Assembly (NCBI GenBank): GCA_028868825.1
Contig: JAGWTU010000010.1
Coordinates: forward strand, 62,001-126,000
Reading direction: 5' to 3'
From: Burkholderiales bacterium
GTDB lineage: Bacteria; Pseudomonadota; Gammaproteobacteria; Burkholderiales; Burkholderiaceae_C
DNA: 64,000 nt
Below are positions 47,689-64,000 of this stretch, in pieces (position 1 is the stretch's first letter; each line of letters opens with the position of its first letter). The position numbers were made by a program, and so were the translations under genes. A model generated the notes under the pieces. It searched no databases. It saw only the letters and a program-made list of their open reading frames with translations, and was not told the origin of the DNA.

Positions 47689-49320
47689 CTAGGGCGGCCC
47701 GGGCTCGCGCTGCAGCCGCTGCAGCTGGTCCTCGTAGGCGCGCAGGAAGGCGCGGCCGAAGAGTTCGTCGAAATCGTCCTGCGCCTCGGTCTGCAGCTGG
47801 CCGAAGAGTTCGGTGAACAGCTCCCACAGCCGCGCCTTGCGCGTCGCCGGGATCAGGCTGGCGAGCGCCGAGCGGTGCGTCAGCTTGGCCTCGAGCTGCT
47901 GCGGGTCGAAGCGCTGCAGCACGCCGTCGAGCGCCGCGCGCATGCCCGCCATGACGCCGATCTGGTGCGCGCGCAGGTCGTCGTAGGCGTCGCGCAGCGC
48001 CGGCGCGGCGGCCATGAAGCCCGGCGTCGTCGGCCCCAGCAGGTGGTTCAGCGCGACCTCGACCGTCGGCGAGAATTTCAGCGGGTTGTTCTCGCGCGCG
48101 ACGATCATCGTCATCTCGGCGCGCAACTCGCGCTTGAGCGCGGCGCGCGCGACCAGCAGCTCGACCGCGCCGCGCGTCGATTCGCGCAGCAGCACGCCGA
48201 TGAGGCGCATCAGCTCGGGCGTCAGCGCATCGAGCCGCAGCCCCGGCGTCGCCAGGCCCTCCTGCAGCGCCGCGAGCAGCGCGGCAGCATCGGTGGCCAT
48301 CGGCGTCGCCTGCGCCGCCGGCGCGGCGACGAACACGGCGGCGGGCGGCAACGGCGCCGCGGGCGTCGGCTTCGCCCGCGGCGGCGGCACCGGCACCGTG
48401 ATCGGCACCGGCTCGGCGGGCAGCGGCTGGCGCTTCGCGCTGCCCAGCTGCGCCCCCGGCAAGGTCACGACATGGCCGTCGGTCGACGGGTCCTGCCACG
48501 ACAGCACGGCACCGGCCGGCAGCGGCGCGGGCGCCGGCACGGCGCGCGACTCGGCCACCGGCAGCCGCATCGGCGTGTTCAGCTCCGAGGCGTGGTCGCT
48601 GGCGCTCGGCAGCACGAGCTGCGCCGTGTTCGCCAATGACTTCATCACGTCGTCGTGGCTGGCGCTGTTGGGCGCCGCCAGCGCCGCCGCGCTGGCACCC
48701 AGCGGATCGCCGGTCAGCGGCGCGGCGCCGAGGCCGAAAAGGTCGTCGAGGCTGTCGGCGCCGCCCTGCGGCAGATCGGCGAGGACGTCGCGGCCCGGCG
48801 CCGGTGCCGGCGCGCCGGCGTCGGTGGCGAACGGGTCCCAGTCGACGGGTATCGAGCCCGGCGTCAGTTTTGCGGCCGGCGCCGGTGCCGGCGCCGACCA
48901 GGGTGCGGCGGCAGGCGCGGGCCGCGGCGGCGCGATCGACGGCGCCGCATGGCCGCGCGGCGCGTCGTCGGCGAACAGCGCCTCGAAGGGATCGGCCGCC
49001 GGCTGCGTCGACGCCCCGGCGCGCACGCCCAGCAGGTAGCCGCCGATCTGCATCTCGTCGCCGGCCTTCAGCGGATGCTCGCGGCCGGCGCCGATCGGCA
49101 TGCCGTTGACGGCGATCGGGTTGCTGCCGTTGTCGACCACCGCATAGCCGCCGGCGCGGAACACGATGCGGGCATGGACGCGCGAGATCGTGCGCTCGGG
49201 GTCGGGCAGCACGAGCTGGTTGCCGTCGGCGCGGCCTATCGTGCCGCCGATCTCGTCGAACTGGGCCGACGGCCCCTGGGCCGGCGTCCCGTTGTAGCTG
49301 AGCACCGTCAGCACGATCAT
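47689..49320 (-). CDS. tagH: FHA-domain T6SS protein TagH (Fha/ImpI)
   Basis: A 543-residue cytoplasmic T6SS regulator/scaffold. The N-terminal FHA domain (about 20-105) has the phosphothreonine-binding pattern GGTIGRADGNQLVLPDPERT then ISRVHARI and NGSNPIAVNG. A Pro/Ala-rich linker leads to the C-terminal TagH/ImpI domain (from about 350), including RELRAEMTMIVARENNPLKF (cited in part) and KARLWELFTELFG. Phospho-binding is expected to promote T6SS assembly. The start at 49320 follows GGAG. It is placed between the PP2C phosphatase and two unknown genes downstream of vgrG. Confidence 0.92.
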   Translation of the reverse strand: MIVLTVLSYNGTPAQGPSAQFDEIGGTIGRADGNQLVLPDPERTISRVHARIVFRAGGYAVVDNGSNPIAVNGMPIGAGREHPLKAGDEMQIGGYLLGVRAGASTQPAADPFEALFADDAPRGHAAPSIAPPRPAPAAAPWSAPAPAPAAKLTPGSIPVDWDPFATDAGAPAPAPGRDVLADLPQGGADSLDDLFGLGAAPLTGDPLGASAAALAAPNSASHDDVMKSLANTAQLVLPSASDHASELNTPMRLPVAESRAVPAPAPLPAGAVLSWQDPSTDGHVVTLPGAQLGSAKRQPLPAEPVPITVPVPPPRAKPTPAAPLPPAAVFVAAPAAQATPMATDAAALLAALQEGLATPGLRLDALTPELMRLIGVLLRESTRGAVELLVARAALKRELRAEMTMIVARENNPLKFSPTVEVALNHLLGPTTPGFMAAAPALRDAYDDLRAHQIGVMAGMRAALDGVLQRFDPQQLEAKLTHRSALASLIPATRKARLWELFTELFGQLQTEAQDDFDELFGRAFLRAYEDQLQRLQREPGPP

Positions 49321-49398: not shown

Positions 49399-50193
49399 TC
49401 AGCGCACGACATAGCAGCGATCGTCGATCCAGGCCACGCGCAGCGGCCAGGCGACGCGGCCGCCGCCGGCGACCTCGCTGCGCAGCACCGGCTCGCCGCC
49501 GGCGTCCAGGCATTCGAAGATGCGGCCATCGGCCTGCGGCCGCAGCAGCAGCGCGTCCGGCTGCGGCAGCGGCGGCTGCAGCGGCGCCTGCGCATGCAGC
49601 TGCTGGATCTGCAGCCGCAGCCGGCCGACATCGTCGGCGAGGTTGCGCTGGTAGGCCAGCGCGAGGTCCTCGAAGCGCAGCCGCGCCGCCTGCACCAGCG
49701 GTTCGGGGTCGCCGCGCGCCAGCGCCGCGGCGAGGCCCTGCAGCCAGGCGGCGATCGGCGCCACCAGCGCCTGCGGCGACGGCGGTGGCGGCATGTCGAA
49801 ATAGCGCCAGCGCGGGAAGGCGATCGGCAATTGCACCGTCTGCGCGATCGCATGCGGCGTCGTCGTCAGCTCGCCTTCGAGCGGCGCCCAGTCGATCTGC
49901 GCCAGCGTGCGCGCGTACTCGGGATGCGCGAGCTGGCCGATGCGCGGCAGCAGCAGGCGCAGGCTGGCGCCGCGCCGGCCGTCGCTGAGCAGCGCCTGCG
50001 GTGCCGCCGGCAGTCCCGGCGGTGGCGGCTCGATGACGAGTGCGAGCTCGTTCGCGCCGGCCAGCGTGTATTCGTGGATCGGCACCGTGACGGCGCGCCG
50101 CGCCGCCGAAGTGCGGGCGAGCGCGACACCGTTGAGCGAGGCCTCGGCGGCGACGCCCACGGTCTCCAGACGCAGCACGAGCAGTCGTTCCAT
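49399..50193 (-). CDS. Unknown protein encoded between vgrG and tagH
   Basis: A 264-residue protein that I do not recognise. It opens with a strand-rich region (LLVLRLETVGVAAEASLNGV; VTVPIHEYTLAGANELALVI) resembling a carbohydrate-binding or jelly-roll-like fold. The middle contains FPRWRYFDMPPPPSP and a helical stretch, and the end is again strand-rich (VAWPLRVAWIDDRCYVVR). No signal peptide or membrane helix. Its ATG overlaps the previous stop by one base (TGATG), so it is tightly coupled to the 573-residue gene. Position suggests a T6SS accessory, effector adaptor or effector; sequence alone does not decide. Confidence 0.7.
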   Translation of the reverse strand: MERLLVLRLETVGVAAEASLNGVALARTSAARRAVTVPIHEYTLAGANELALVIEPPPPGLPAAPQALLSDGRRGASLRLLLPRIGQLAHPEYARTLAQIDWAPLEGELTTTPHAIAQTVQLPIAFPRWRYFDMPPPPSPQALVAPIAAWLQGLAAALARGDPEPLVQAARLRFEDLALAYQRNLADDVGRLRLQIQQLHAQAPLQPPLPQPDALLLRPQADGRIFECLDAGGEPVLRSEVAGGGRVAWPLRVAWIDDRCYVVR

Positions 50194-51914
50194 CAGCCGG
50201 CGCTCCATTCGCACAGCGTCTGCTCGGGCCACAGCGGCAGCGTCAGGCTGCGCGTGCCGAGCACCGGATCGACGACGACCAACGGCAGCGTCGCCGCCGT
50301 CAGCCGCAGCGTCGCGAACCAGGTCCAGCCGCTGCCGCCGCTGCGCGGGCGCAGGCCGGCGCTGCCGGCGAGCGCGCCCTTGAGCGGACCGCCGGCCTGC
50401 AGCAGCGCGCCGCTGTCGGAGGCCAGCGGCGTCAGCTCGGCGACGAGGGGGATCTCGAATTCGGTGCGCGCGGGCAGCAGCAGGTCGAGCAGCGCCGGCT
50501 CGGCCGCGTCGCGCTTCATCTGCAGCGCCAGCGCCGCGCTGCCCGCGGCGTGCAGTGCCAGCCGCGCGCGCGCGCCGGCCTGCGCCAGTTCGGCCTCGAA
50601 ATGCAGGTCGCTGCGGCAGGCCTGCATCCCGATCCCGGCCCACAGGCGCATGAAGGCGGCCCCGGCCATGCCGCCCGTGCCCAGCCGCCAGCCCCAGGTC
50701 AGCGCGGCGTGGCCGAGCAGCAAACCGAGCTGGCCTTCGAGCTTCGCCTCGCTCGCCCCGGCGACGGCGGCCAGCGCGGCGAGCCAGGCCTGCTGCGCGC
50801 GCGCCGTCGCGGCTTCGAGTTCGACCGCGAAGGCCCGCTGCAGCGCCGCCGCGTCGACCTCGGCGCCGTCGCGCTCGACGCGGCAGCGCGTGCGCCCGGG
50901 CGCCGCCGGTGCGCGGGCCGCGACGACCGGCTGCGCGGGCGCGATCTCGCGCTCGATCTCGACGGCCGTCTGCGCGGCCGGCCAGACCCACACCTGGGCC
51001 GCCGGTGAGCCGATCGCGTCGCCCTCGTCGCGCAGCCCGCAGGTCTGGATCTCGAGGCGGAAGATGTCGGGCGTCGTCTCCTCGGCGATCGCCATGCCCG
51101 GCGCGGCCATGCGCTGCGCCAGCGTCGCCACCGGCCAGCTCACGGCGCGCGTCTCGTGGCCCTGCCAGCGCCACAGGCCATGCGTGCCGGCGTATTCGAG
51201 CGCCGGGTGCCGATCGCCGTCGCACGCCGCGTGGCTGCGCGAGCGCAGTTGCAGCTGCGCCGGCGGCCGCCGGCCGGGTTCGTGGGCGAGCAGCGCGATG
51301 ACCGGCGGCAGCGGCGTCGCCGCCGTCACGCGCAGCGGCGCCGGCGCCGACAGCGGCTCGCGCCGCAGGGCCTTGCCGTCGATGACGTAATGCGCACCGG
51401 GCGCCGCCTCGATCAGGCGCAGCTCGGCCGCCTCCAGATCGCAGGCGCGGCGCGGCGGCGGCGCGGCCGGCGGCGCGACCATCGCGCCCTGGCGGCCGCG
51501 CCGGCCGAAGGCGTCGATGAGCCGCTCGTCGGCGGCGATCAGCGCCTGCGGCGTGGCGCGCGCATCGTTGCCGCGGCGCTCGAGCTCGGCGACACTGCGC
51601 CGCACGAGCTGGTGCACGGTGGCCCAGGCGCGTTCGGGCGGTGCCGCGAGCAGCCCCTGCGCCCATTCGAAACCCGGCTTGTCGTGGAACGACGGCCCCC
51701 AGACGAACCAGAGATTGACGTAGCGCGCGACGGCCGGCGCCGCGTCGATGCCGCGATCGAGCGCACGTTGCACCGCCGTGGCGACGAATTCGGCATGGCG
51801 CTCGCCGAGCCGCTCATGCACCGTCGGCCACTGGGCGGCGAGCTGCGCGGCGAGCCGGCCGACGAAATCGGACCAGGCGGCTTCCTCGCGGGCCCAGGGA
51901 TCGCTCGGTTGCAC
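50193..51914 (-). CDS. Large unknown protein downstream of vgrG
   Basis: A 573-residue protein without a recognised family. The N-terminal 110 residues are helical with a WFVWGPSFHDKPGFEWAQGL segment; the middle carries APGAHYVIDGKAL and a WRWQGHETRAVSWPVATLAQR patch; the C-terminal 200 residues are rich in Ala/Leu and predicted strands. No signal peptide, membrane helix or known toxin motif is visible. The GTG start at 51914 lies 13 bp after the vgrG stop and the gene is coupled to the next one. Genes in this position often encode VgrG-loaded effectors or their chaperones, but here that is only an inference. Confidence 0.7.
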   Translation of the reverse strand: MQPSDPWAREEAAWSDFVGRLAAQLAAQWPTVHERLGERHAEFVATAVQRALDRGIDAAPAVARYVNLWFVWGPSFHDKPGFEWAQGLLAAPPERAWATVHQLVRRSVAELERRGNDARATPQALIAADERLIDAFGRRGRQGAMVAPPAAPPPRRACDLEAAELRLIEAAPGAHYVIDGKALRREPLSAPAPLRVTAATPLPPVIALLAHEPGRRPPAQLQLRSRSHAACDGDRHPALEYAGTHGLWRWQGHETRAVSWPVATLAQRMAAPGMAIAEETTPDIFRLEIQTCGLRDEGDAIGSPAAQVWVWPAAQTAVEIEREIAPAQPVVAARAPAAPGRTRCRVERDGAEVDAAALQRAFAVELEAATARAQQAWLAALAAVAGASEAKLEGQLGLLLGHAALTWGWRLGTGGMAGAAFMRLWAGIGMQACRSDLHFEAELAQAGARARLALHAAGSAALALQMKRDAAEPALLDLLLPARTEFEIPLVAELTPLASDSGALLQAGGPLKGALAGSAGLRPRSGGSGWTWFATLRLTAATLPLVVVDPVLGTRSLTLPLWPEQTLCEWSAG

Positions 51915-51927
51915 GGGGCCCCGGGCC

Positions 51928-53982
51928 TCAGCGGTGCGTCATCGGGTCGACCGGCGTCGCCGGCGCGTCGGGCGGCGGCGGGTCGCTCGGCGCGACCGGC
52001 TGCGGCGGGCTGCCCGAACCCGGACTGCCGCCGGAGTTGATCTGCACGATGGTGCCGGTGATGGACACGCCAGCCGGACTCAGCACGACCGAATTGCCGC
52101 CGACGACGAGGCTGATGTTCGTGCCGCCCTCGATGACGATGTTCGTGCCGCCCTTGATGTAGACGTTCTGCGCCGCCTCGGCGCCGATGTTGCCGCCGAT
52201 CTTCACGTGCAGATCGCTCTTGGACTTCAGCGAGATCGCGGCCCCCGATTCGGCCGTGATGTCCTGTTCGGCCTTCAGGCTGTAGACGCCGCCGCCCTTG
52301 ACGGCGATGTCGCTCGCCACTTCCAGCCCCAGCGCGGCGTCGAATTTCTGCTTCACCGCGCCGGTGACGCCCAGGCTGTAGGCGCCGGACACCTTGGCCT
52401 TCAGATCGCCACCGACGGTGTGCTGCTGATCCTTGCCGATCTGCGTCGTCAGGTCGGCCTCGATCATCTCCATCATGTCCTTCTGGGCCTGCAGCCAGAC
52501 GAGCTCGGATCCCGCCTTGTCCTCGAAGCGCAGTTCGTTGAACTCGGCCGCCGCGCCCTGCAGGCTGCGGCTCTTGATCGTGCTCACCGTCTTGTTGTCG
52601 GGCAGCGCGTAGGGCACTTTCTGCATCGCGTTGTAGACGCGGCCGGTGATGATCGGCTGGTCGGGGTCACCCTCGAGGAAATCGACGACGACCTCCTGGC
52701 CCAGGCGCGGCAGCGCGATCATGCCCCAGCCGTTGCCGGCCCAGGGCGATGCGACGCGCACCCAGCAGCTGCTGTCGCCGTCGTTGTGGCCGAGGCGGTC
52801 CCAGTGGAACTGGACCTTGACGCGGCCGTATTCGTCGGTCGTGATCGCGCCGTCGCCGCCGTCGCCGACGACGATCGCCGTCTGCGGCCCGGCGACGGTG
52901 GGCTTGCGCGTCGTGCGTTCGGGCCGGTAGGGCTCGGCATCGCCCTGGGCCTCGAATTCGCAGCGGAAGCTCGTGCGGCGTTCGTCGCCCGATTCGTAGC
53001 CCGCTTGCTGCATCTCGATGCGCGTCGCGCGCACCAGGTACTTCGCGTTCTGGTCGGCGCGCGGATGGTCCTGCAGCGTGAAGGTCGAACCCGCGGCCAG
53101 CCCGGGCGTGTTGCCGCCGCCGCTGTAGCGCCCGTAGAGCGAGCTGTGCTCGTCGACGCGCACCTGCGCCAGCGTGCCGCCGCGAGCGGCCGCGTCGTAG
53201 CGGCCCGGATAGTCGTAGACCTCGAACGCGGTCTGCGCATGGTCGCCGCCGCTGACGACGGCGCTGGCCGTGAGGTCGGTCGCCGGCTGCGTGAAATTCC
53301 AGTCGCGCACCACGACCTTGCCGGTCTGGATCTCGTGGCGCATATGCCAGCTCGAGATCGCCTCGAGTTCGGCCAGGCGCTGTTCGTCCTCGGTGTAGGG
53401 CACGTTCGCATAGCCGGCCATGGGCTGGAACGAGCTCGGCTTGTCGACGAGCACGAGCTCATGCTGGTCGGCGCCATGGCGGAAGAAGTAGCCGATGCCC
53501 TCCTCCTCGAGCAGGCGGCTGACGAATTCGAAATCGGTCTCGCGGTACTGGACGCAATAGACGCGCGGCGCGTAGCTGCCCTGCAGGTCGTCGGCGACGG
53601 TGCCGTTGTAGGCGCTGAAGACGGCCTTCACGATGTCGGGCACCGATTGGTTCTGGAAGATGCGCAGGTTGGCGCTGCGCGTGGCGAGCCAGAACCAGGG
53701 CCGCAGCGTGATGCGGTAGGCGAGATGGCGGCCGTCGACACCGTCGATGCCGAAGGCGGCGACGACGCCGTGGAACCAGCGCTTGGCGTCGCCGCCGACC
53801 TGCAGCGAGACGGCGGCCTTCTGGCCCAGCAGGTCGCCCGGCGCGACGGTCGCACTCGTCGCGATGGCGACGACCTGGAATTCGAACAGCCGCGAGATCT
53901 CCTCGCGCGCCGACATCGACCGGAATTTGAGTCCCAGGTCGGGACTCGTGACGAATTCCATCATCAATGGAGAGGCGGGCAT
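51928..53982 (-). CDS. vgrG: T6SS spike protein VgrG
   Basis: A 684-residue VgrG/Tli-family spike trimer subunit. The N-terminal gp27-like part includes VYCVQYRETDFEFVSRLLEEEGIGYFF (cited in part). The gp5-like OB fold has YGRVKVQFHWDR and PWAGNGWGMIALPRLGQEVVV, and PDQPIITGRVYN follows. The C-terminus is a repetitive beta-helix (GGTNIVIEGGTNISLVVGG) ending in a Pro-rich tail (PPQPVAPSDPPPPDAPATPV). No enzymatic extension is evident; the tail may dock PAAR or cargo. ATG at 53982 follows GAGG. It is divergent from the TssB/TssC-like fusion gene and upstream of two unknown genes. Confidence 0.95.
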   Translation of the reverse strand: MPASPLMMEFVTSPDLGLKFRSMSAREEISRLFEFQVVAIATSATVAPGDLLGQKAAVSLQVGGDAKRWFHGVVAAFGIDGVDGRHLAYRITLRPWFWLATRSANLRIFQNQSVPDIVKAVFSAYNGTVADDLQGSYAPRVYCVQYRETDFEFVSRLLEEEGIGYFFRHGADQHELVLVDKPSSFQPMAGYANVPYTEDEQRLAELEAISSWHMRHEIQTGKVVVRDWNFTQPATDLTASAVVSGGDHAQTAFEVYDYPGRYDAAARGGTLAQVRVDEHSSLYGRYSGGGNTPGLAAGSTFTLQDHPRADQNAKYLVRATRIEMQQAGYESGDERRTSFRCEFEAQGDAEPYRPERTTRKPTVAGPQTAIVVGDGGDGAITTDEYGRVKVQFHWDRLGHNDGDSSCWVRVASPWAGNGWGMIALPRLGQEVVVDFLEGDPDQPIITGRVYNAMQKVPYALPDNKTVSTIKSRSLQGAAAEFNELRFEDKAGSELVWLQAQKDMMEMIEADLTTQIGKDQQHTVGGDLKAKVSGAYSLGVTGAVKQKFDAALGLEVASDIAVKGGGVYSLKAEQDITAESGAAISLKSKSDLHVKIGGNIGAEAAQNVYIKGGTNIVIEGGTNISLVVGGNSVVLSPAGVSITGTIVQINSGGSPGSGSPPQPVAPSDPPPPDAPATPVDPMTHR

Positions 53983-54173
53983 GGATCCTCGGTGCGTTGG
54001 CACCGGACCCGCGCGAAGGCGCGGACGGCGACGTCGACGACTATACGGTGCGGGGCAGCGCTGCCGCCGTCCCGGCCATGAGTGGCCCGCGCCGCCATCC
54101 GGTTCCTCGAGAAAGCGATTGCGCTCGCCGCCCGAGATGAAGCACATTACGCGCGCAACCGTTGGAGCGAACC

Positions 54174-55586
54174 ATGCCCGGACGTCTGAAGATCGACATC
54201 GGCGCGGCGCCGCCACCGCTGCGGCGGCAGTCCCGCGGGCCCCTGCGGCTGCTGCTGATCGGCGACTTCAGCGCCCGGCCGCCGGGCCAGCGGCCGCCGC
54301 TGGCGCAGCGGCCGACGCTGCGCGTCGACGTCGACAACCTCGACACCGCGCTGCGGCGGCTGGCACCGCGGGCCGCGACGGCGGCGGCGGGAACGATAGC
54401 CTTCGATTCGATCGACGATTTCCACCCCGACGCGCTGTACCGCCGCCTCGACGGCTTCGCCGCCCTGCGCCGGCGCCGCGACGAGGCCGGCGACCCGCAG
54501 CGGCTGGCGCAGATCGCACCGGCGGCCGCCGCCGGCGGCGCCCCCGGCGCCGACCTGCTGGCCGGGCTGCTCGGCGGCCGGCCGGCCGGCAGCTCGGCAG
54601 CGCAGCCGGCGCATCGCGGCACGGACAGCGGCGGCGCCGCCGTCGAGGCGCTCTTGCGCGCGGCCGTGGCACCGCATGTCGTGCCCGACTTCAGCGGCGC
54701 GCAGGCACTGCTGCTGGCAGGCGTCGATGCGGCGGTGACGGCGTTGATGCGCTCGATCCTCCACGACGCCGCGTTCCAGGCGCTGGAATCGGCCTGGCGC
54801 GGTGTGCAATGGCTGATCCAGAACCTCGAACTCGACGAGCAGCTCGAGCTGCACCTGTTCGACGCGACGCGCGAAGAACTGGTCGCCGACATCGTGAGCC
54901 AGCGCGGCGAGCTGGCGCGCACCGGCGTGCATCAGGCGCTCGCCGACCGCTGGCGCGGCCTGCCCGACGAGCAGGGCTGGTCGATGCTGGCGGGGCTGGA
55001 CCGCTACGGTCCGGGCGATGCCGACATCGGCCTGCTCGCCGCGCTGGGGCTGATCGCCGCGGCAGCCGGCGGTCCCTTCGTCGCCGGCGCCGAACTCGCG
55101 CTGGCCGGCGCCGCGACGGCGGGCGCCGGCTGGCCGGCGCTGCGCCGCAGCGAGGCCGCACCCTGGCTCGGCCTGGCCGCGCCACGCCTGCTGCTGCGCC
55201 TGCCCTATGGCCAGGCGCACGATCCGGTCGAGTCGTTCGCCTTCGAGGAATTCGACGGTGTACCGGCGCACGAGCAGCTGCTGTGGGGCACCGGCTCGCT
55301 CGCGGTGGCGCTGCTCGCCGGCCGCGGCTTCATGGCGCGCGGCTGGGGCATGGAGCTCGGCGACGAACGCGAGATCGGCGACCTGCCGGCCTACAGCGTG
55401 ATCCGCGACGGCGAACGCGAACTGCAGGCCTGCGCCGAGCATTACCTCGGCGAACAAGGCGCGCAGGCGCTGCTCGAGGCCGGGCTGATGCCGCTCGTCA
55501 GCCACCGCCACCGCAATGCGGTGACGCTGCCGCGCCTGCAGTCGGTGGCCGAGCCGGCGCAGGCCCTGCGTTTCGGTGCGGCTTGA
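54174..55586 (+). CDS. Fused TssB-like/TssC-like T6SS sheath-related protein
   Basis: A 470-residue protein whose N-terminal ~110 residues resemble TssB (LRLLLIGDFSARP, LAQRPTLRVDVDNLD, IAFDSIDDFHPDALYRRL). The rest resembles TssC (VDAAVTALMRSILHDAAF, ALESAWRGVQWLIQNLELDE, APRLLLRLPYGQAHDPVESF, then AFEEF and LLWGTGSLAVAL). Normal TssB and TssC are separate proteins of about 170 and 490 residues, so this is a shortened fusion missing part of the TssC region. GGAG precedes the ATG. It is the only plus-strand gene in the block, divergent from vgrG across 191 bp. Sheath variant, cap/adaptor or regulator are possible roles. Confidence 0.82.
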   Translation: MPGRLKIDIGAAPPPLRRQSRGPLRLLLIGDFSARPPGQRPPLAQRPTLRVDVDNLDTALRRLAPRAATAAAGTIAFDSIDDFHPDALYRRLDGFAALRRRRDEAGDPQRLAQIAPAAAAGGAPGADLLAGLLGGRPAGSSAAQPAHRGTDSGGAAVEALLRAAVAPHVVPDFSGAQALLLAGVDAAVTALMRSILHDAAFQALESAWRGVQWLIQNLELDEQLELHLFDATREELVADIVSQRGELARTGVHQALADRWRGLPDEQGWSMLAGLDRYGPGDADIGLLAALGLIAAAAGGPFVAGAELALAGAATAGAGWPALRRSEAAPWLGLAAPRLLLRLPYGQAHDPVESFAFEEFDGVPAHEQLLWGTGSLAVALLAGRGFMARGWGMELGDEREIGDLPAYSVIRDGERELQACAEHYLGEQGAQALLEAGLMPLVSHRHRNAVTLPRLQSVAEPAQALRFGAA

Positions 55587-55619: not shown

Positions 55620-56228
55620 TCAATAGGCGTCGGAGGTGATTTCCTCGACGCCGAAGATGGGCCCCGACATGCCGCCCGCCGACCGCGTCTGGACGTCGAC
55701 GCGCGTGGCCGCGACGCGTCCGCCGGCGAGATCGGCGAAGACGAGGGTCGCCGCATTCGTCGTGCCCACCGGGAATTCGGCGGCCATCCCGATCTTCTTG
55801 CTGAACAGCACTTCCTTGCGCGCCATCTCGGGCGCATCGCGCCAGGCGGCGACGTTGGGATCGTTCTTCATCTCGCAGGAGATATGGGCGACATAGATCT
55901 TGCCGTCGAGCCGGCCGACCTCGAAATAGCAGCCGCTGTAGGGCCCCGACGCGGCCCAGGTCTGGGCTCCCGAGAGAAAGCCGTAGACCGTCTTCTGCGC
56001 CAGGTACGGCACCCACATGCCGTCGCCGGCGTCGTCCTTGATCAGCTGCAGCAGGTTCTCGCCGGTGACCTGGCTGATCACGCGCTGCGAATCCTCGGTG
56101 CTGCGACGGATCGCGATCGACGCCTGCTGCGGATTGCCCCCGGCGCGCACGGTCGACAGCGCCGGTTCCTTGAGCAGCATCACCCCGGCATGCCGGTATT
56201 TCGCCAGGTCCGAATATTTGATCGACAT
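55620..56228 (-). CDS. Unknown protein in the clpV-vgrG interval (202 aa)
   Basis: A 202-residue protein that I do not recognise. It begins SIKYSDLAKYRHAGVMLLKE, has a central aromatic/glycine-rich part (GMWVPYLAQKTVYGFLSGAQ; ASGPYSGCYFEVGRL), two Cys residues and a C-terminus ending GGMSGPIFGVEEITSDAY. No signal peptide or membrane segment is predicted. The start at 56228 follows a GGAGAGCTCCC sequence almost identical to that before the next upstream gene, supporting a shared origin or coordinated translation. It is last in the minus-strand run clpV-136 aa-336 aa-202 aa. A T6SS cargo or immunity role is possible from position alone. Confidence 0.7.
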   Translation of the reverse strand: MSIKYSDLAKYRHAGVMLLKEPALSTVRAGGNPQQASIAIRRSTEDSQRVISQVTGENLLQLIKDDAGDGMWVPYLAQKTVYGFLSGAQTWAASGPYSGCYFEVGRLDGKIYVAHISCEMKNDPNVAAWRDAPEMARKEVLFSKKIGMAAEFPVGTTNAATLVFADLAGGRVAATRVDVQTRSAGGMSGPIFGVEEITSDAY

Positions 56229-56253
56229 GGGAGCTCTCCGCGCGGGTCCGAAT

Positions 56254-57264
56254 TCAGCCGAACACCTTCTTGACGGCGCGCGCCTTGACGCGCGCGAAGA
56301 AGCCCTTCTTCTGGTACGTGCCCTTGTTCGACTGCAGTCCATCGAGTTGCAGGTGCGACCGGTCGATCGCCTTCGCCGCGATCTTCAGCAGGGGATCCAT
56401 CTTCTCGGCCTTGAGCTTCTCGACCTTGTCCATCCACCCCGGCAGGCCGATGTCGGCGACGAACAGATTGGCCACCGACGAGGTGTCGGCGCAGGTCAGC
56501 AGATAGCAGCCGAGGATCGGGCAGGCGGCGAATACCGTCGCGTCGAGGGCGTCGGGATGGGCCAGCAGGCGGTTGCCGGCGCGCATGTCCTTGATGTCCA
56601 GGCCGAGCGCGAACAGCTTCAGGCCCAGCGTGGCCAGCGTGTTGCCCAGGCCGATGCCGGCCGTCGTCGCGGTGCCGAAATCGGCGAACAGGCCGGCGAT
56701 CTTGGCCCCGGTGACGGTGGCCTGGCGCGCCAGGTCGACCGAGTGCATGCCGATGTCGCGCTCGATGATGATCTTGATCGCGTCGGCCGCGGCGAGCGGG
56801 TCGCCGGGCCGGAAGCCCTTGCGGTATTCGCCATGCTTGTAGAGGTTGCGTGCGTCCTCGACGACGACCTTGGTCGCCTCGGCGAGCTTCTTGGCGCTCC
56901 AGAGCACGCCGATCACCGGCGTGACCTCGGCGATGAGCTGCTTGAACACCTCGCCGCCGAGCGCTTCGATCACGTCGTGGATGTTGTCGACATCGGCGCA
57001 CTCGCGCACGAAACCCTCGACGGCGGCCTTGAAGCCCGGCACCGACAGCGCCTTGGACGCCTCGGCCCCGCCCTTGACGAGCGATTTGACGTCCGACGCG
57101 ATCGACTTGCCGCTGGACAGCAGATCCTTGGCCGTCGACGCCCGCGCCGCATTGCCGAATTTCAGCTGCGTGCCGCTGAACATGTTGACGAGCAGCATGC
57201 GCCTGGCCTTGGCGAGTTCACCCAGGGCGACGAATTCTTCGCGGGACAATGACTTGCTGGGCAT
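56254..57264 (-). CDS. Unknown protein with hydrophobic segments in the T6SS locus (336 aa)
   Basis: A 336-residue protein of unknown family. The N-terminal half is largely helical and Lys-rich (TAKDLLSSGKSIASDVKSLV). Two Gly/Ala-rich hydrophobic segments follow: TTAGIGLGNTLATLGLKLFA near the middle and ATVFAACPILGCYLLTC with three cysteines. The C-terminus is strongly basic (KKGFFARVKARAVKKVFG). The combination of amphipathic helices and hydrophobic hairpin-like segments could suit a membrane-active protein, for example a pore-forming effector, but no family match can be claimed. AGGAGCTCCC precedes the ATG. It lies 25 bp before the 202-residue gene. Confidence 0.7.
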   Translation of the reverse strand: MPSKSLSREEFVALGELAKARRMLLVNMFSGTQLKFGNAARASTAKDLLSSGKSIASDVKSLVKGGAEASKALSVPGFKAAVEGFVRECADVDNIHDVIEALGGEVFKQLIAEVTPVIGVLWSAKKLAEATKVVVEDARNLYKHGEYRKGFRPGDPLAAADAIKIIIERDIGMHSVDLARQATVTGAKIAGLFADFGTATTAGIGLGNTLATLGLKLFALGLDIKDMRAGNRLLAHPDALDATVFAACPILGCYLLTCADTSSVANLFVADIGLPGWMDKVEKLKAEKMDPLLKIAAKAIDRSHLQLDGLQSNKGTYQKKGFFARVKARAVKKVFG

Positions 57265-57301
57265 GGGAGCTCCTGGTTGGGATCGTGCGATCGGCGGCGC
57301 G

Positions 57302-57712
57302 CTACCACGCCTTCTTCTTCGTCGTCCAGCCCTCGTCGTCGGTCACCGCAACGGTCTTCTTGTAGAGCCGCACCTGGATGTGCAGATTGAAGACATTGGC
57401 GCCGCCCTTGGCCGGCCAGGCGACGATGTTGACCTTGTTCTCGCCGCCGCCCTTGACCGTCTTGTAGGCATGATCGGTTCGCGTGTGCTTGTTCTGCACC
57501 GGCAGCGCCTTGAGCTTGTATTGCGTCTCGCCGTTGCGGAACTGGATCCACCTTTCGTAGCCGCCGAAAGTCTCCGACACGAGCCCGTCGATGTCGTCCT
57601 CGGTCACCGTGGTGCCGTAGTCGAGCTTATTGTTCCAGGCGGTCGCGGTGTTCTCCGCACCCAGCAACTCGGTCTCGATCCAACGCCACAGCGTCTTTGC
57701 GTCTTCGGTCAT
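57302..57712 (-). CDS. Unknown small protein directly downstream of clpV (136 aa)
   Basis: A 136-residue soluble protein, unrecognised. It starts MTEDAKTLWRWIETELL and is rich in Trp, Lys and strands (GGYERWIQFRNGETQYKLKA; FNLHIQVRLYKKTVAVTDDE). No signal peptide, Cys or membrane helix. GAGGAAA lies eight bases before the ATG at 57712; the frame is open upstream but that portion overlaps the gap after clpV. It follows clpV by 28 bp and precedes the 336-residue gene by 37 bp on the same strand, so the three unknown genes are probably expressed with the T6SS operon. Confidence 0.7.
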   Translation of the reverse strand: MTEDAKTLWRWIETELLGAENTATAWNNKLDYGTTVTEDDIDGLVSETFGGYERWIQFRNGETQYKLKALPVQNKHTRTDHAYKTVKGGGENKVNIVAWPAKGGANVFNLHIQVRLYKKTVAVTDDEGWTTKKKAW

Positions 57713-57740
57713 GTCGATTTCCTCGGGTGGGGGGGGGCGG

Positions 57741-60503
57741 TCAGGCGGCATCGAACTGGTAGCGGAAGCCGTGGTCGTCGACATCGACGGCCACGCGCTC
57801 GATTGGCTGCCCTTCCATCATCCGCGTCAGGAATTCGCGGCTGATGTCGGGCAGCATCGTGTTCGTCAGGATCGCATCGATCATCCGCCCGCCCGATTCG
57901 CTTTCGGTGCAGCGTGAAACGACGAGCTTGACGACCTCGTCGCTGTATTCGAACGGGATCTTGTAGCGCGCCTCGACGCGCTTCTTGATGCGGTTGAGCT
58001 GCAGCTTGACGATCTTGCCCAGCATCTCGTCGCTGAGCGGGTAATACGGAATCGTCACCAGGCGCCCGAGCAGCGCCGGCGGGAAGACCTTGAGCAGCGG
58101 CTCGCGCAGCGCCTTGGCCATGCCCTCGGGGTCGGGCATCAACTCGGGGTCCTTGCAAAGGCTGGCGATGAGGTCGGTGCCGGCGTTCGTCGTCAGCAGG
58201 ATGAGCGTGTTCTTGAAGTCGATGAAGCGCCCTTCGCCGTCCTCCATGAAGCCCTTGTCGAAGACCTGGAAGAACATCTCGTGCACGTCGGGGTGCGCCT
58301 TCTCGACCTCGTCGAGCAGCACCACGCTGTAGGGCTTGCGGCGCACGGCCTCGGTCAGCACGCCGCCTTCGCCGTAGCCGACATAGCCCGGCGGCGCGCC
58401 CTTGAGCGTCGAGACCGTGTGCGCCTCCTGGTACTCGCTCATGTTGACGGTGATCATGTTCTGCTCGCCGCCATACAGCGCCTCGGCCAGCGCCAGCGCC
58501 GTCTCGGTCTTGCCGACGCCCGAGGTCCCGGCGAGCATGAAGACGCCGATCGGCTTGCTCGGATTGTCGAGTCCGGCGCGGCTGGTCTGGATGCGCTTGG
58601 CGATCATCTCCATCGCGTGGTCCTGGCCGATCACGCGCTGCGCCAGCGCATCGGCGACCTTGAGGATGGTCTCGATCTCGTTGCGCGCCATGCGGCCGAC
58701 CGGAATGCCGGTCCAGTCGCCGACGACGGCCGCGACGGCCTGGTAATCGACGGTCGGCAGGATCAGCGGATGCTCGCCCTGCAGCGTCGCGAGTTCGGAC
58801 TGGACTTCCTTGAGCCGCGCGAGCTGCTGCACGCGTTCGGCCTCGCGCTGCGCCTCGCGGTCGCCCTCGGTCATGCCGGCCGCGGTCCGCGCGACCTGCG
58901 CCGCCTCGGCCGCGGCCGCCGCCTCCAGCGTGCTGCCCGTGCCCTCGACCGGCCGCAGGCCGCCGCGCAGCTGGGCGCGCAGCGCCAGCAATTCGTCGAC
59001 CAGTTTGCGCTCGGCGGCCCAGCGCGTGTCGAGCGCGGCCAGCCGTTCGCGCTCGGCGGCGAGCAGCTCGCCGGCGTCGCTCTCGCGCTTGCCGACATCG
59101 ACGCCGATCGCCTTCTCGCGCGCGATGATGCCGAGCTCGGTCTCCAGCGCCTCGATGCGCTTGCGGCTGTCGTCGACCTCGGCGGGCGTCGCATGCAGGC
59201 TCACCGCGACGCGGGCGCAGGCGGTGTCGAGCAGGCTCACGCTCTTGTCGGGCAGCTGGCGCGCCGGGATGTAGCGGTGGCTGAGCTTGACGGCGGCCTC
59301 GAGCGCCTCGTCGAGGATCTGCACCTGGTGGTGCTTCTCCATCGTGCTGGCGACGCCGCGCATCATCAGGATCGCCTTGGGCTCGTCGGGCTCGTCGACC
59401 TGCACGGTCTGGAAGCGCCGCGTCAGCGCCGGGTCCTTCTCGATGTGCTTCTTGTATTCGGCGAAGGTCGTCGCGCCTATCGTGCGCAGCGTGCCGCGCG
59501 CCAGCGCCGGCTTGAGCAGGTTGGCCGCATCGCCGGTGCCGGCGGCGCCGCCGGCGCCGACCAGCGTGTGCGTCTCGTCGATGAACAGGATGATGGGCTT
59601 GGGGCTGGCCTGGACCTCGTCGATGACGCTGCGCAGCCGCTGCTCGAATTCGCCCTTCATGCTCGCGCCGGCCTGCAGCAGGCCGACGTCGAGCGCGCGC
59701 AATTCGACTTCCTTGAGGCTCGGCGGCACGTCGCCGCGCGCGATGCGCTGCGCGAAGCCCTCGACGATCGCGGTCTTGCCGACGCCGGCCTCGCCGACGA
59801 GGATGGGGTTGTTCTGGCGCCGCCGCATCAGGATGTCGACGACCTGGCGGATCTCGTCGTCGCGGCCGACGATGGGGTCCATCTTGCCCTCGCGCGCCTG
59901 CGCCGTGAGGTCGACGGTGAATTTCTTCAGCGCCTCCTGCTTGCCCATCGCCGCCGGCGCGATCGCGCCGCTGGCCTCGCCGGGCGCGCCTGCGCCGGTG
60001 CTGCCGTCGCTGGCGCCCTGCCCGTCCTCGGGCGATCCGGCGACGATCTGGGTCAGGCTGTCGGACAGCTCGTCGACCTTGATGCGGTCGAACTGGCGGC
60101 TGATCGCGAGCAGCGCGTTGCGCAGGTTCTTCGTCTTCAGCATGCCGACCAGCACATGGCCGGTGCGCACGCTGCTGTCGCCGTAGAGCAGCGTGCCGTA
60201 GACCCAGCCGCGCTCGATCGCGTCGGGGATCTGTTCGGCGATGTCGCTGATGGCGGTGGCGCCGCGCGGCAGGCGGTCGAGCGCGGCCGTGAGGTCCTTG
60301 GCCAGCGCCGACATGTCGAGCTGGAAATGCTGGATCACGCGATGCCAGTCGCTGTCGGCACTCTGCACGATCTGTGCGATCCAATGCTCGAGTTCGACAT
60401 AGGGATTGCCGCGCAACTTGCAGAACACGGTGGCGCCCTCGACCGCCTTGTAGGCCGGCGGGTTGAGCTTGCCGAACAGCGTGACGCGGTTGATTTCTGC
60501 CAT
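57741..60503 (-). CDS. tssH: T6SS ATPase TssH (ClpV)
   Basis: A Clp/Hsp100 AAA+ unfoldase of 920 residues that disassembles contracted TssBC sheaths. The N-terminal domain starts FGKLNPPAYKAVEGATVFCK, as in ClpV. AAA-1 has GEAGVGKTAIVEG near 236-248 and IILFIDETHTLVGAGG. A middle coiled-coil region follows. AAA-2 has GTSGVGKTETALALAE near 660 and VVLLDEVEKAHPD. AGGAAA lies before the ATG at 60503. It follows tssG by 11 bp, matching the Pseudomonas H1-type order tssE-tssF-tssG-clpV. Confidence 0.96.
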   Translation of the reverse strand: MAEINRVTLFGKLNPPAYKAVEGATVFCKLRGNPYVELEHWIAQIVQSADSDWHRVIQHFQLDMSALAKDLTAALDRLPRGATAISDIAEQIPDAIERGWVYGTLLYGDSSVRTGHVLVGMLKTKNLRNALLAISRQFDRIKVDELSDSLTQIVAGSPEDGQGASDGSTGAGAPGEASGAIAPAAMGKQEALKKFTVDLTAQAREGKMDPIVGRDDEIRQVVDILMRRRQNNPILVGEAGVGKTAIVEGFAQRIARGDVPPSLKEVELRALDVGLLQAGASMKGEFEQRLRSVIDEVQASPKPIILFIDETHTLVGAGGAAGTGDAANLLKPALARGTLRTIGATTFAEYKKHIEKDPALTRRFQTVQVDEPDEPKAILMMRGVASTMEKHHQVQILDEALEAAVKLSHRYIPARQLPDKSVSLLDTACARVAVSLHATPAEVDDSRKRIEALETELGIIAREKAIGVDVGKRESDAGELLAAERERLAALDTRWAAERKLVDELLALRAQLRGGLRPVEGTGSTLEAAAAAEAAQVARTAAGMTEGDREAQREAERVQQLARLKEVQSELATLQGEHPLILPTVDYQAVAAVVGDWTGIPVGRMARNEIETILKVADALAQRVIGQDHAMEMIAKRIQTSRAGLDNPSKPIGVFMLAGTSGVGKTETALALAEALYGGEQNMITVNMSEYQEAHTVSTLKGAPPGYVGYGEGGVLTEAVRRKPYSVVLLDEVEKAHPDVHEMFFQVFDKGFMEDGEGRFIDFKNTLILLTTNAGTDLIASLCKDPELMPDPEGMAKALREPLLKVFPPALLGRLVTIPYYPLSDEMLGKIVKLQLNRIKKRVEARYKIPFEYSDEVVKLVVSRCTESESGGRMIDAILTNTMLPDISREFLTRMMEGQPIERVAVDVDDHGFRYQFDAA

Positions 60504-60514
60504 GGGGTTTCCTT

Positions 60515-61579
60515 TCAGTGGGCGAGTGCCGAATTCGGCACCAGATTCAATGCGGTGGCCATCCCCAGGCGCGGCGCGCCGACCCAGCTCGTCCAGCCCA
60601 GGCGGTTGCCGCGGCCGGGGCGCGTCGGCGGGACCTGCGCGCGCTCGAGTTCGAGCCGCAGATCCCAATCGAATTCATAACTGATGTATTGCCGCACGAG
60701 CGCCAGCATGGCCGGCAGCCGCGCCCCGCCGGGCAGCAGCGATTCGTAGGTCGCGAGGTCGAGCGGTCCGATATGGATGCGGAAGTGGTGCTGACGGTCG
60801 AACACCGCGGCACCGAGCACGGCGCTGGCGCCGAGCTGCGAGGTCGCGCCATGGCGCAGCCGGCCGGCGCGGCCGACGCGCGTGCGCTGCGCCGGCGGCA
60901 GCGCCATCCAGCGGCCGACGAACTGCTCGACGCGCACCGGCATGCCGAGGAAACCGGTGAGCAGTTGCGCCAGGCCGTCGGCGTTGCGCACCTGGCGCGA
61001 CAGCAGTCCGGCGTGGGCCAGCCGCGCATGGTCGGGCGCGGCGTCGCGGCCGCGCCAGGCGGCGCCGCCGACGCCGATCAGCGAGCCGACGTAATCGGCC
61101 CAGCGGTCGTCGCCGGGACGGTCCAGGCTCGCCGTCGGCTGCGCCTGCGCCCAGGCGCGGTAGAACAGCAGCAGCAAGCGGTGGTGGAAGAGGTCGGCGA
61201 AGCGGCCGAAGGTCTCGTCGCCCTTGTGCAGCCGGCGCTCGCGCGCATGGGCCGTGAGGTGCAGCGGCAGCGGGCCGTTGGGGCCGAAGAGGCCGAAGAA
61301 GCGCACCTCGACGCGCGGCCGGCCGCTGCGGTCGGCCGGGTCGACGGCCGCCAGCGTCGCCGGCGCGAACGACAGATCGGCGGCCTGGGCGAGGCGCAGC
61401 GGCTCGTCGGCCGGGCGTCGCGCCTGGCCCAGGCGCGGCTGCTGCGGATGCAGCGCCTCGATCAGCCGCAACGCGTGGAAATAGTCGTAGCGCCAGGGCT
61501 GGTCGGCGAGCGCGCGCCACAGCGCCGCGCGGCGGTCGTGCAGCGCCGCGCCGACAGCCGTTGCTTCGGCGGTTTTCAC
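60515..61579 (-). CDS. tssG: T6SS baseplate subunit TssG (ImpH)
   Basis: A 354-residue baseplate component that, with two TssF copies, forms the T6SS wedge. Family landmarks are RYDYFHALRLIEALHPQQPR near the N-terminus, VEVRFFGLFGPNGPLPLHL and FHHRLLLLFYRAWAQAQPT, plus GGARLPAMLALVRQYISYEF close to the end. A GTG start at 61579 overlaps the tssF stop (GTGA), so translation is coupled; no ATG fits. Confidence 0.94.
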   Translation of the reverse strand: MKTAEATAVGAALHDRRAALWRALADQPWRYDYFHALRLIEALHPQQPRLGQARRPADEPLRLAQAADLSFAPATLAAVDPADRSGRPRVEVRFFGLFGPNGPLPLHLTAHARERRLHKGDETFGRFADLFHHRLLLLFYRAWAQAQPTASLDRPGDDRWADYVGSLIGVGGAAWRGRDAAPDHARLAHAGLLSRQVRNADGLAQLLTGFLGMPVRVEQFVGRWMALPPAQRTRVGRAGRLRHGATSQLGASAVLGAAVFDRQHHFRIHIGPLDLATYESLLPGGARLPAMLALVRQYISYEFDWDLRLELERAQVPPTRPGRGNRLGWTSWVGAPRLGMATALNLVPNSALAH

Positions 61580-63455: not shown

Positions 63456-63962
63456 CTAGCGGTCCAGTTCGCGCACCGCGACGCGGCCGGTCTCGAGATC
63501 GATGTCGGTCTGCAGCAGCAGCTCCAGCGGCACCGGCTGCGCCCAGAGCTGGCCCGAGATGCGGAAACCGATCTGGTTGTGATGGTCCATCTGCGCCTCG
63601 GACAGCACGGCCTCGACGGTCAGCGTCTCGGGCAGGATGCGCGGCTCGTGGTCGACGATGGCCTGGCGCACGCGCGCCTGCAGCACCAGCGGGTCGATCG
63701 TCGATGCCGTCAGCCCGGACAGCGCCGGCAGGCCGAAATTCAGCACCGAATCGCGCGCCTGCGGCGCCGCGCTCCAGTCGATGCCGGCGCCCGGCGCCGT
63801 CGTGTTGAAGAGCCAGACGAGATCGCGCAGCACGAGCTCGCGCATGCGCGTGCGGCCGATCACGCGCGCCTCGGCGCTTTCGTGGCGCGAGCCGACGTCG
63901 TCGTCGGTCAGCCGGTCGAGCAGCGCCGGCTGCAGGCGGTCCTGGGCCCGCAGCGTCGCCAT
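63456..63962 (-). CDS. tssE: T6SS baseplate subunit TssE (gp25-like)
   Basis: A 168-residue gp25/GpW-family baseplate protein that helps initiate sheath assembly. The conserved core includes RELVLRDLVWLFNTTAP, the SVLNFGLPAL segment and AIVDHEPRILPETLTVEAV; the family EPR motif is present in HEPRI. The ATG at 63962 overlaps the stop of the preceding gene (TGATG), indicating an operon running in from beyond the right edge of the window. Confidence 0.93.
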   Translation of the reverse strand: MATLRAQDRLQPALLDRLTDDDVGSRHESAEARVIGRTRMRELVLRDLVWLFNTTAPGAGIDWSAAPQARDSVLNFGLPALSGLTASTIDPLVLQARVRQAIVDHEPRILPETLTVEAVLSEAQMDHHNQIGFRISGQLWAQPVPLELLLQTDIDLETGRVAVRELDR

Positions 63963-64000
63963 CAGCAGGCCGCCTGCGCGGCTTCGGCCAGCGTCACCGA
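63962..64000 (-). CDS. C-terminal end of the gene upstream of tssE (probably a T6SS component)
   Basis: Only the last 12 codons and the TGA are in the window, encoding SVTLAEAAQAAC. The stop overlaps the tssE start. In H1-type T6SS loci this position is held by tagJ (impE), so that is the best guess, made on gene order only; the residues themselves are not diagnostic. Confidence 0.45.
   Translation of the reverse strand, partial: SVTLAEAAQAAC

What the first reader, a model, noticed from the sequence alone, without database searches (positions are those of the whole stretch)
54174..55586. TssB-like and TssC-like domains fused in one 470-residue protein
Residues about 1-110 resemble TssB and about 150-470 resemble TssC, though the two sheath subunits are normally separate genes of about 170 and 490 residues. 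The gene is the only one on the plus strand in the block and is divergent from vgrG. A shortened sheath-like fusion might cap, seed or regulate the sheath, or be part of an alternative contractile assembly.
Basis: partly seen in the sequence, partly recalled or inferred. Interest (0 to 1): 0.72.

Follow-up and report, generated by a model that had tools for sequence, protein, structure and literature searches.

The report
Fused, truncated secretion-sheath protein family
This gene encodes a single protein made from pieces of the two proteins that build the contractile sheath of a bacterial toxin-injecting machine, minus the part that lets them polymerise; it belongs to an old, conserved family found almost only in bacteria that have the machine, and so looks like a dedicated accessory to that machine.

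Summary
Window 54174-55586 (+) encodes 470 aa with a TssB/VipA domain (residues 23-103, E 5.7e-9) and a TssC/VipB domain (181-457, E 2e-40). It is neither a chance frame nor a relic: 44 of 44 full-length homologues scanned have both halves and none matches the TssC C-terminal gpW/gp25-like domain (VipB_2), which the ordinary TssC of the same cluster has. The 44 form one branch apart from 66 canonical TssCs; 7 of 7 close pairs tested show purifying selection. In 369 genomes of the window's class the fusion is found in 16, and 15 of these also carry canonical TssC, against 56 of 353 others. It adds to, and does not replace, the normal sheath. It keeps the sheath's middle domain, a TssB-like N-terminal arm and a TssC-N-terminus-like motif, both conserved in stretches predicted disordered. 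Best mechanism (inferred, 0.42): a non-polymerising single-chain sheath protomer that docks on sheath subunits and regulates assembly or ClpV recycling. In 23 of 44 loci it is divergent from a vgrG, which keeps a spike/cargo role open. No description of such a fusion turned up in the paper searches.

The parts
54174..55586 (+). fusion gene (TssB-like + TssC-like, 470 aa), ATG start with GGAG upstream
54174..54200 (+). residues 1-9, N-terminal arm MPGRLKIDI, matched by eye with canonical TssB 'PRVQIEYDV' (handshake donor strand beta1); disordered in the model but conserved
   Evidence: role of TssB beta1 from passages of PMC5807055
54240..54482 (+). TssB/VipA-like domain, residues 23-103
   Evidence: PF05591 E 5.7e-9; 44 of 44 proteins
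54549..54578 (+). linker motif ADLLAGLLGG (residues 126-135), aligned with the TssC N-terminus (SDLASLL); short helix in a disordered linker
54714..55544 (+). TssC/VipB-like middle-layer domain, residues 181-457; ends where canonical TssC continues into its gpW/gp25-like domain
   Evidence: PF05943; VipB_2 absent in 44 of 44, present in window TssC
53965..54173 (.). intergenic region between the divergent vgrG and fusion genes
51928..53964 (-). vgrG (frame open to 54216)
50193..51914 (-). 573-aa protein of unknown family, conserved beside vgrG (16 of 29 regions clustered, window included)
49399..50208 (-). 269-aa protein of unknown family, conserved beside the 573-aa gene (15 of 29 regions, window included)
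47689..49320 (-). tagH (FHA protein)
55620..57751 (-). three genes of unknown family (202, 336, 149 aa) in the position where some relatives carry cargo-type genes (DUF4123 adaptor, M35 peptidase)
57741..60503 (-). clpV (tssH), called by ClpB-type AAA domains and position
60515..61579 (-). tssG
61576..63444 (-). tssF
63456..63962 (-). tssE (gp25-like)
63962..64000 (-). end of tagJ/impE (continues to 64780 in contig C95), followed beyond the window by two hcp-like genes (named from their sequence starts, not scanned), tssC and tssB

Best explanation
[quoted passage not shown] Shown: it joins the TssB middle-layer part to the TssC N-terminal region and middle-layer domain, keeps an N-terminal arm like TssB's and a conserved motif like TssC's N-terminal one, and lacks the TssC C-terminal gpW/gp25-like domain and the TagJ anchor of TssB; it is conserved, under purifying selection, one branch on the tree, and found almost only where an ordinary T6SS exists. 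Inferred: it docks through its free arm onto an exposed acceptor sheet of ordinary TssC (a free protomer, an unfinished disc or a sheath end), where nothing can dock onto it in turn, so that it holds subunits unpolymerised or blocks an end, and its exposed TssC-like motif hands the complex to ClpV or keeps ClpV nearby. The net effect would be control of where and when sheath forms or is recycled.
For: Both Pfam halves in 44 of 44 proteins, VipB_2 in 0 of 44, and VipB_2 present in the window's TssC. AlphaFold2 model pLDDT 86, pTM 0.83: ordered core from residue 23, arm 1-22 and linker flanks low in confidence, short helix 127-132. Foldseek: the best nine PDB hits are T6SS sheath large-subunit chains. 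Mean information content (bits per column, 44 rows): arm 1-9 2.39 (about 2.1 without Met1) against 1.23 for 10-22; motif 126-135 2.12 against 1.41 and 1.04 in its flanks; TssC core 2.41. In PMC5807055 the handshake is made by TssC beta11-13 plus TssB beta1, and the middle domain by TssB beta2-3 and TssC beta1-4 and beta8 (passages). Fusion and canonical TssC co-occur: 15 of 16 against 56 of 353, Fisher p 7e-11, relatedness not corrected for; 40 of 42 fusion genomes have TssC. dN/dS 0.12-0.44 (NG86) and 0.05-0.22 (YN00), 7 of 7 pairs. One branch against 66 TssCs, SH-aLRT 100. Fusion rows in the six hosts whose TssC is not of the DLASLL kind all have an LLD-type linker motif like V. cholerae LLDEIM (6 of 6, against 3 of the other 38; typed by eye).
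Against: No interaction, structure of a complex or phenotype was measured or predicted (no multimer modelling was available). That beta11 and beta12 lie in the missing domain is my inference from the numbering; the match of the arm to TssB beta1 was made by eye, the arm is not a strand in the monomer model, and only 28 of 44 rows have the strict MxxR[MLIV]xF form. The motif covariation is confounded by descent: five of the six LLD-type rows form one clade, and three fusions of TagJ-bearing hosts (L058, L062, L143) have it too. In the TagJ class, to which the window belongs, the TssC N-terminus was found not to be needed for ClpV1 binding (PMC4239648, passages). In 20 of 44 loci no vgrG lies in the held flank and several fusions are solo genes away from recognised T6SS genes. 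Most T6SS-bearing genomes do without it (15 of 71 in the class sample have it). Co-occurrence does not say which component it touches.
Confidence: 0.42

Rival explanations
1. A VgrG/cargo-linked accessory: it uses the sheath fold to hold a VgrG-effector complex or baseplate at the nascent sheath, being specific for the spike and not for sheath turnover.
For: Divergent and within 2 kb of vgrG in 23 of 44 loci, including distant genomes (L138, L139, L141, L155), one more on the same strand; in G409 and G539 it sits with a vgrG on a contig other than that of tssC; some relatives carry a DUF4123-type or peptidase gene on its other side.
Against: 20 of 44 loci have no vgrG match in the held flank (some flanks are short, and divergent VgrGs could be missed). 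19 of the 23 vgrG-linked loci are from the named set around Rubrivivax and Paucibacter. No adaptor-type domain was reported in any member.
Confidence: 0.2
2. A specialised end or adaptor ring of the sheath, like the minor sheath paralogues of extracellular contractile injection systems (PVC/AFP; recalled), joining sheath to baseplate or to the distal TssA cap.
For: Sheath fold; Foldseek also lists PVC and Streptomyces injection-system sheath and baseplate chains, weakly. TssA is present in 18 of 20 fusion-bearing genomes searched, so the fusion would act beside it.
Against: It lacks the gpW/gp25-like domain; whether PVC/AFP paralogues keep theirs was not tested. Most T6SS-bearing genomes do without it (15 of 71 in the class sample have it).
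Confidence: 0.18
3. Decaying or non-functional duplicate of tssBC.
For: Shorter than TssB plus TssC and faster evolving: nine near relatives are 54-65% identical to it, while TssC of seven of the same genomes is 91-94% identical to the window's.
Against: dN/dS 0.12-0.44 in 7 of 7 pairs, one deep branch, conserved core residues and two conserved motifs, 15 of 16 co-occurrence with T6SS.
Confidence: 0.03
4. Sheath protein of a separate, alternative contractile machine.
For: Single-chain sheath subunits are the rule in phages and extracellular systems (recalled); some fusions are far from the T6SS cluster.
Against: No tube or baseplate gene was recognised beside the solo copies, by eye on translation starts and by BLAST to the window's T6SS proteins (no family scan was made there); no gpW/gp25-like domain; no phage record covers 80% of it; ordinary TssC in 40 of 42 genomes.
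Confidence: 0.03

Closest known systems
TssB/VipA (PF05591, TIGR03358)
   Same: residues 23-103 match; N-terminal arm resembles the PRVQIEY strand of canonical TssB
   Different: no TagJ-binding K/F anchor (0 of 44 with KF in the first 22 residues); match stops at profile position 118 of 155; fused to TssC
TssC/VipB (PF05943 + PF18945, TIGR03355)
   Same: N-terminal motif and helices, middle-layer core motifs (WRG, PRxLxRxPYG, FxFEE, LWG)
   Different: no gpW/gp25-like C-terminal domain (0 of 44), TIGR03355 score 129 under the cut-off 271.5, about 28% identity to the TssC of the same cluster
Tandem second TssC (as in Agrobacterium, PMC5813230, passages read)
   Same: an extra sheath large-subunit-like gene in some T6SSs
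   Different: the tandem copies seen here keep VipB_2
Minor sheath paralogues of PVC/AFP-type injection systems (function recalled)
   Same: specialised sheath-fold proteins beside a bulk sheath protein; weak Foldseek hits to such machines
   Different: different machine; they were not examined in detail

Membership tests
TssB/VipA | VipA domain | tested here: met
   PF05591 E 5.7e-9 over cut-off; 44 of 44
TssB/VipA | full-length equivalog score, C-terminal part included | tested here: not met
   TIGR03358 32 bits against cut-off 97; Pfam match ends at 118 of 155
TssC/VipB | VipB middle domain | tested here: met
   PF05943 139 bits; 44 of 44
TssC/VipB | gpW/gp25-like C-terminal domain | tested here: not met
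   VipB_2 absent in 44 of 44; present in window TssC
Polymerising T6SS sheath protomer | forms sheath with its partner | not testable with these tools
   needs purification or imaging
ClpV-recognised sheath subunit | N-terminal docking motif of TssC | tested here: inconclusive
   conserved motif in the linker at the matching place, but in the TagJ class the TssC N-terminus is not needed for ClpV1 binding (PMC4239648 passages)
TagJ-binding TssB | N-terminal Lys9/Phe10 anchor | tested here: not met
   0 of 44 rows with KF in the first 22 residues; anchor from PMC4239648 passages
T6SS accessory protein | occurs with T6SS core genes | tested here: met
   15 of 16 against 56 of 353; 40 of 42

The most novel reading that the evidence does not exclude
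A dead-end sheath subunit: the fusion gives its arm to an ordinary TssC but offers no acceptor sheet, and so acts as a built-in chain terminator or anti-polymerisation chaperone of the T6SS sheath, with its exposed motif calling in ClpV. None of the listings or passages seen in the searches made here describes such a control.
Probability: 0.28. Interest if true: 0.82.

Novelty: new variant of a known kind. Interest (0 to 1): 0.6.

Why it matters
How T6SS sheath length, start site and recycling are controlled is still being worked out, and the known factors (TssA, TagA, TagJ, ClpV) are not sheath homologues (recalled). A conserved protein built from the sheath protomer itself, but without its C-terminal polymerisation domain, gives a directly testable candidate, and environmental isolates that carry it are named here. 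It also warns that such genes can be taken for ordinary sheath subunits.

Tried and rejected
Replacement of TssA: rejected, since PF06812 is found in 24 of 26 genomes searched, 18 of 20 of the fusion-bearing ones (misses G025 and G026). Dependence on TagJ: rejected, since ImpE is present in 34 of 42 but absent in G684, G477, G578, G811 and G1006, which are 99-100% complete. Spread on plasmids or phages: no record in either collection covers 80% of the protein. Wrong frames: two stretches (60675-61640 and 49399-51666) were given in the wrong frame and corrected; the tssB query was in a wrong frame, so its 'tssB' rows mean nothing and are not used. The L003 stretch was cut short by me, so its lack of VipB_2 there is not evidence. 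The codon-based gene finder fails on lower-GC loci and sometimes called antisense frames; a length-based caller was used for L138-L155, so gene calls there are rough.

Literature: searches gave listings (20 of 111, 15 of 54 and 6 of 6 papers seen as titles and abstract starts), in which 'TssBC fusion' and 'TssB-TssC fusion' had no occurrence in the rows shown; searches gave no paper; one search gave three, of which passages of two were read. Boyer 2009 (PMC2660368) was read only as passages; its fusion remarks concern VgrG. Only open-licence PMC papers are held, so absence from print is not shown.

Rows dropped before counts: L070 and L073 (cut by contig ends), L142/G554 (start unsure) and G548 (only the TssC half lies on its contig) are not among the 44 aligned proteins; L142 is in the 44 loci, whereas the window itself is not. 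Of 78 canonical TssCs gathered, 12 near-copies were left out of the tree. The class search used E <= 1e-65, so 16 of 369 is a lower bound; distances to vgrG are to BLAST matches, not to gene ends.

Full report
WHAT WAS CLAIMED AND WHAT IS THERE. The frame 54174-55586 (+) gives 470 aa. Pfam finds T6SS_VipA (TssB) at 23-103, E 5.7e-9, and VipB (TssC) at 181-457, E 2.2e-40, both over their cut-offs. NCBIfam finds the two sheath models but under their equivalog cut-offs. Sequence comparison with the PDB gives TssC-type chains for the larger part and TssB-type chains for the front.

SURROUNDINGS. The window is G000:C95:62001-126000. By gene calls and Pfam the minus-strand block is tagH, two unknown genes (269 and 573 aa), vgrG, then the plus-strand fusion, three unknown genes, clpV, tssG, tssF, tssE, tagJ (ImpE), two genes that look like hcp (not scanned), tssC and tssB; from tagJ on it lies beyond 64000. 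Ordinary tssB and tssC therefore exist next door. By the starts of their translations, the genes at 15-22 kb look like tagF, tssM, tssL and tssK (not scanned against families).

A FAMILY, NOT A ONE-OFF. In 61 genomes searched (own included), nine close full-length homologues besides the window's own, one distant (G004) and one partial (G035) were found. A scan of named genomes gave 28 loci in Rubrivivax, Roseateles, Paucibacter, Leptothrix, Panacagrimonas and others (some are the same genomes as). An order sample had at least 3 of 300 (my count of listed matches that span both halves; the list was cut), a sample of the window's class, by inference Gammaproteobacteria in the GTDB sense, 16 of 369, and a phylum sample 3 of 398, window included each time. 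The 44 full-length proteins collected (window, 26 of the 28 named loci, 17 of 18 further unnamed loci) all match both Pfam halves and none matches VipB_2 (27 of 27; 18 of 18, window repeated). The window's TssC has VipB 53-355 and VipB_2 365-476. A tree of the TssC part puts the 44 fusions on one side of a branch from 66 TssCs (SH-aLRT 100; quick search, several long branches flagged). Seven of seven close pairs, two pairs of solo copies included, have dN/dS below 0.45 by NG86 and below 0.22 by YN00.

IT GOES WITH T6SS. Of 42 fusion-bearing genomes 40 have a canonical TssC with VipB_2 (misses G026 and G554, drafts of about 170 and 290 contigs). In the class sample 71 of 369 have it, and 15 of the 16 fusion genomes are among them, against 56 of 353 of the rest (Fisher p 7e-11; relatedness not corrected for). 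The fusion is thus an addition in a minority of T6SS-bearing genomes (15 of 71). TssA is present in 18 of 20 fusion-bearing genomes searched (24 of 26 in all); TagJ is not required (34 of 42).

POSITION. Of 44 loci, 23 have the fusion divergent from vgrG with a gap of 173-1917 bp, one has vgrG on the same strand 3.3 kb away, and 20 have no match in the held flank. In some gaps a further gene intervenes; the one scanned is a TPR-methyltransferase. On its other side some relatives carry cargo-like genes: of eight neighbour genes scanned, one is a DUF4123 protein and one an M35-type peptidase. In Rubrivivax sp. A210, Panacagrimonas and several other genomes the fusion is a solo gene among unrelated genes.

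ANATOMY. The AlphaFold2 model (27-sequence alignment, pLDDT 86, pTM 0.83) has an ordered core from residue 23 on, a low-confidence arm 1-22, and a low-confidence linker holding a short helix 127-132. Foldseek's best nine PDB hits are T6SS sheath large-subunit chains. According to passages of the P. aeruginosa sheath paper (PMC5807055) the inner-layer handshake consists of TssC beta11 and beta12, beta13 from a neighbouring TssC and beta1 from a neighbouring TssB; the middle layer of TssB beta2-3 and TssC beta1-4 and beta8; the outer three-helix bundle of one TssB and two TssC helices. Taken together (inference; no strand-by-strand superposition was made): the fusion keeps the middle layer and the TssC N-terminal helices, keeps the TssB arm (MPARLQFEF in a relative against PRVQIEYDV in canonical TssB), and with the gpW/gp25-like domain has lost beta11-13. 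The arm and the linker motif are islands of conservation in stretches predicted disordered (2.39 and 2.12 bits per column, against 1.0-1.4 around them), as expected of binding segments. The TagJ anchor KF of TssB is absent in all 44 (anchor residues from PMC4239648 passages).

THE LINKER MOTIF. The alignment puts the fusion's GADLLAGLLGG on the TssC N-terminus GSDLASLLQKEF. PMC4239648 (passages) reports LLDEIM-type motifs in V. cholerae-like TssC, which dock on ClpV, and a different EFASLL motif in P. aeruginosa HsiC1, of the TagJ class. In the six fusion rows whose host TssC is not of the DLASLL kind (L145-L148, L151, L152) the fusion motif is of LLD type in 6 of 6; in the other 38 rows it is so in 3 (L058, L062, L143) (typed by eye). 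N-termini of host TssCs were read for 37 genomes, not for the hosts of all 44. Five of the six are one clade, so this is suggestive only; and in the TagJ class the TssC N-terminus was dispensable for ClpV1 binding.

MECHANISM. Most likely (0.42) the protein is a non-polymerising protomer mimic: its arm can be given to an ordinary TssC, nothing can dock on it in turn, and its TssC-like motif is always exposed. It could keep protomers from self-assembling, stop growth at an end, or bring in ClpV. No binding was tested. The vgrG/cargo-adaptor rival (0.20) rests on the recurrent vgrG neighbourhood; an end-ring role (0.18) on the fold. A relic or a separate contractile machine is contradicted by the data.

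NOVELTY. The parts are known; the combination as a conserved, truncated, single-chain family beside an ordinary sheath was not found described in the open papers searched (mostly seen as listings), which do not cover subscription journals or preprints.

Noticed in passing
window 50193-51914 and 49399-50208 (-): Two genes (573 and 269 aa) conserved beside vgrG in 16 and 15 of 29 regions clustered, without any Pfam or NCBIfam match; a fold could not be run.
   Followed up: partly
L074-L076 and L144, C-termini: A subfamily of the fusion has a long low-complexity C-terminal tail with 2-3 copies of a DPELAALLASLG-like motif, the last copy at the very end of the protein; it resembles the linker motif and the TssC N-terminus.
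   Followed up: partly
L156-L160 (G684, G477, G578, G393, G811): Two tssC genes in tandem, both with VipB_2; consecutive tssC genes are known from Agrobacterium (PMC5813230, passage).
   Followed up: partly
window 55620-57751 (-) and the same place in relatives: Variable cargo-like genes between fusion and clpV; relatives include a DUF4123 protein and an M35-type peptidase here.
   Followed up: partly
L049:8512-9864 and the same place in seven other loci (L050, L060, L061, L065, L067-L069): A gene family lies between vgrG and the fusion, absent from the window; the L049 copy is TPR plus methyltransferase.
   Followed up: no
G000:C87 and the end of G000:C95: A second TssC, 95% identical to that of the window's cluster, is cut by the start of contig C87, while C95 ends inside tssB; the assembly is broken at near-identical sheath genes.
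   Followed up: no
several fusion members (for example L141, L143, L145, L148, L154): Distant members end in a conserved LxGxW-type tail.
   Followed up: no
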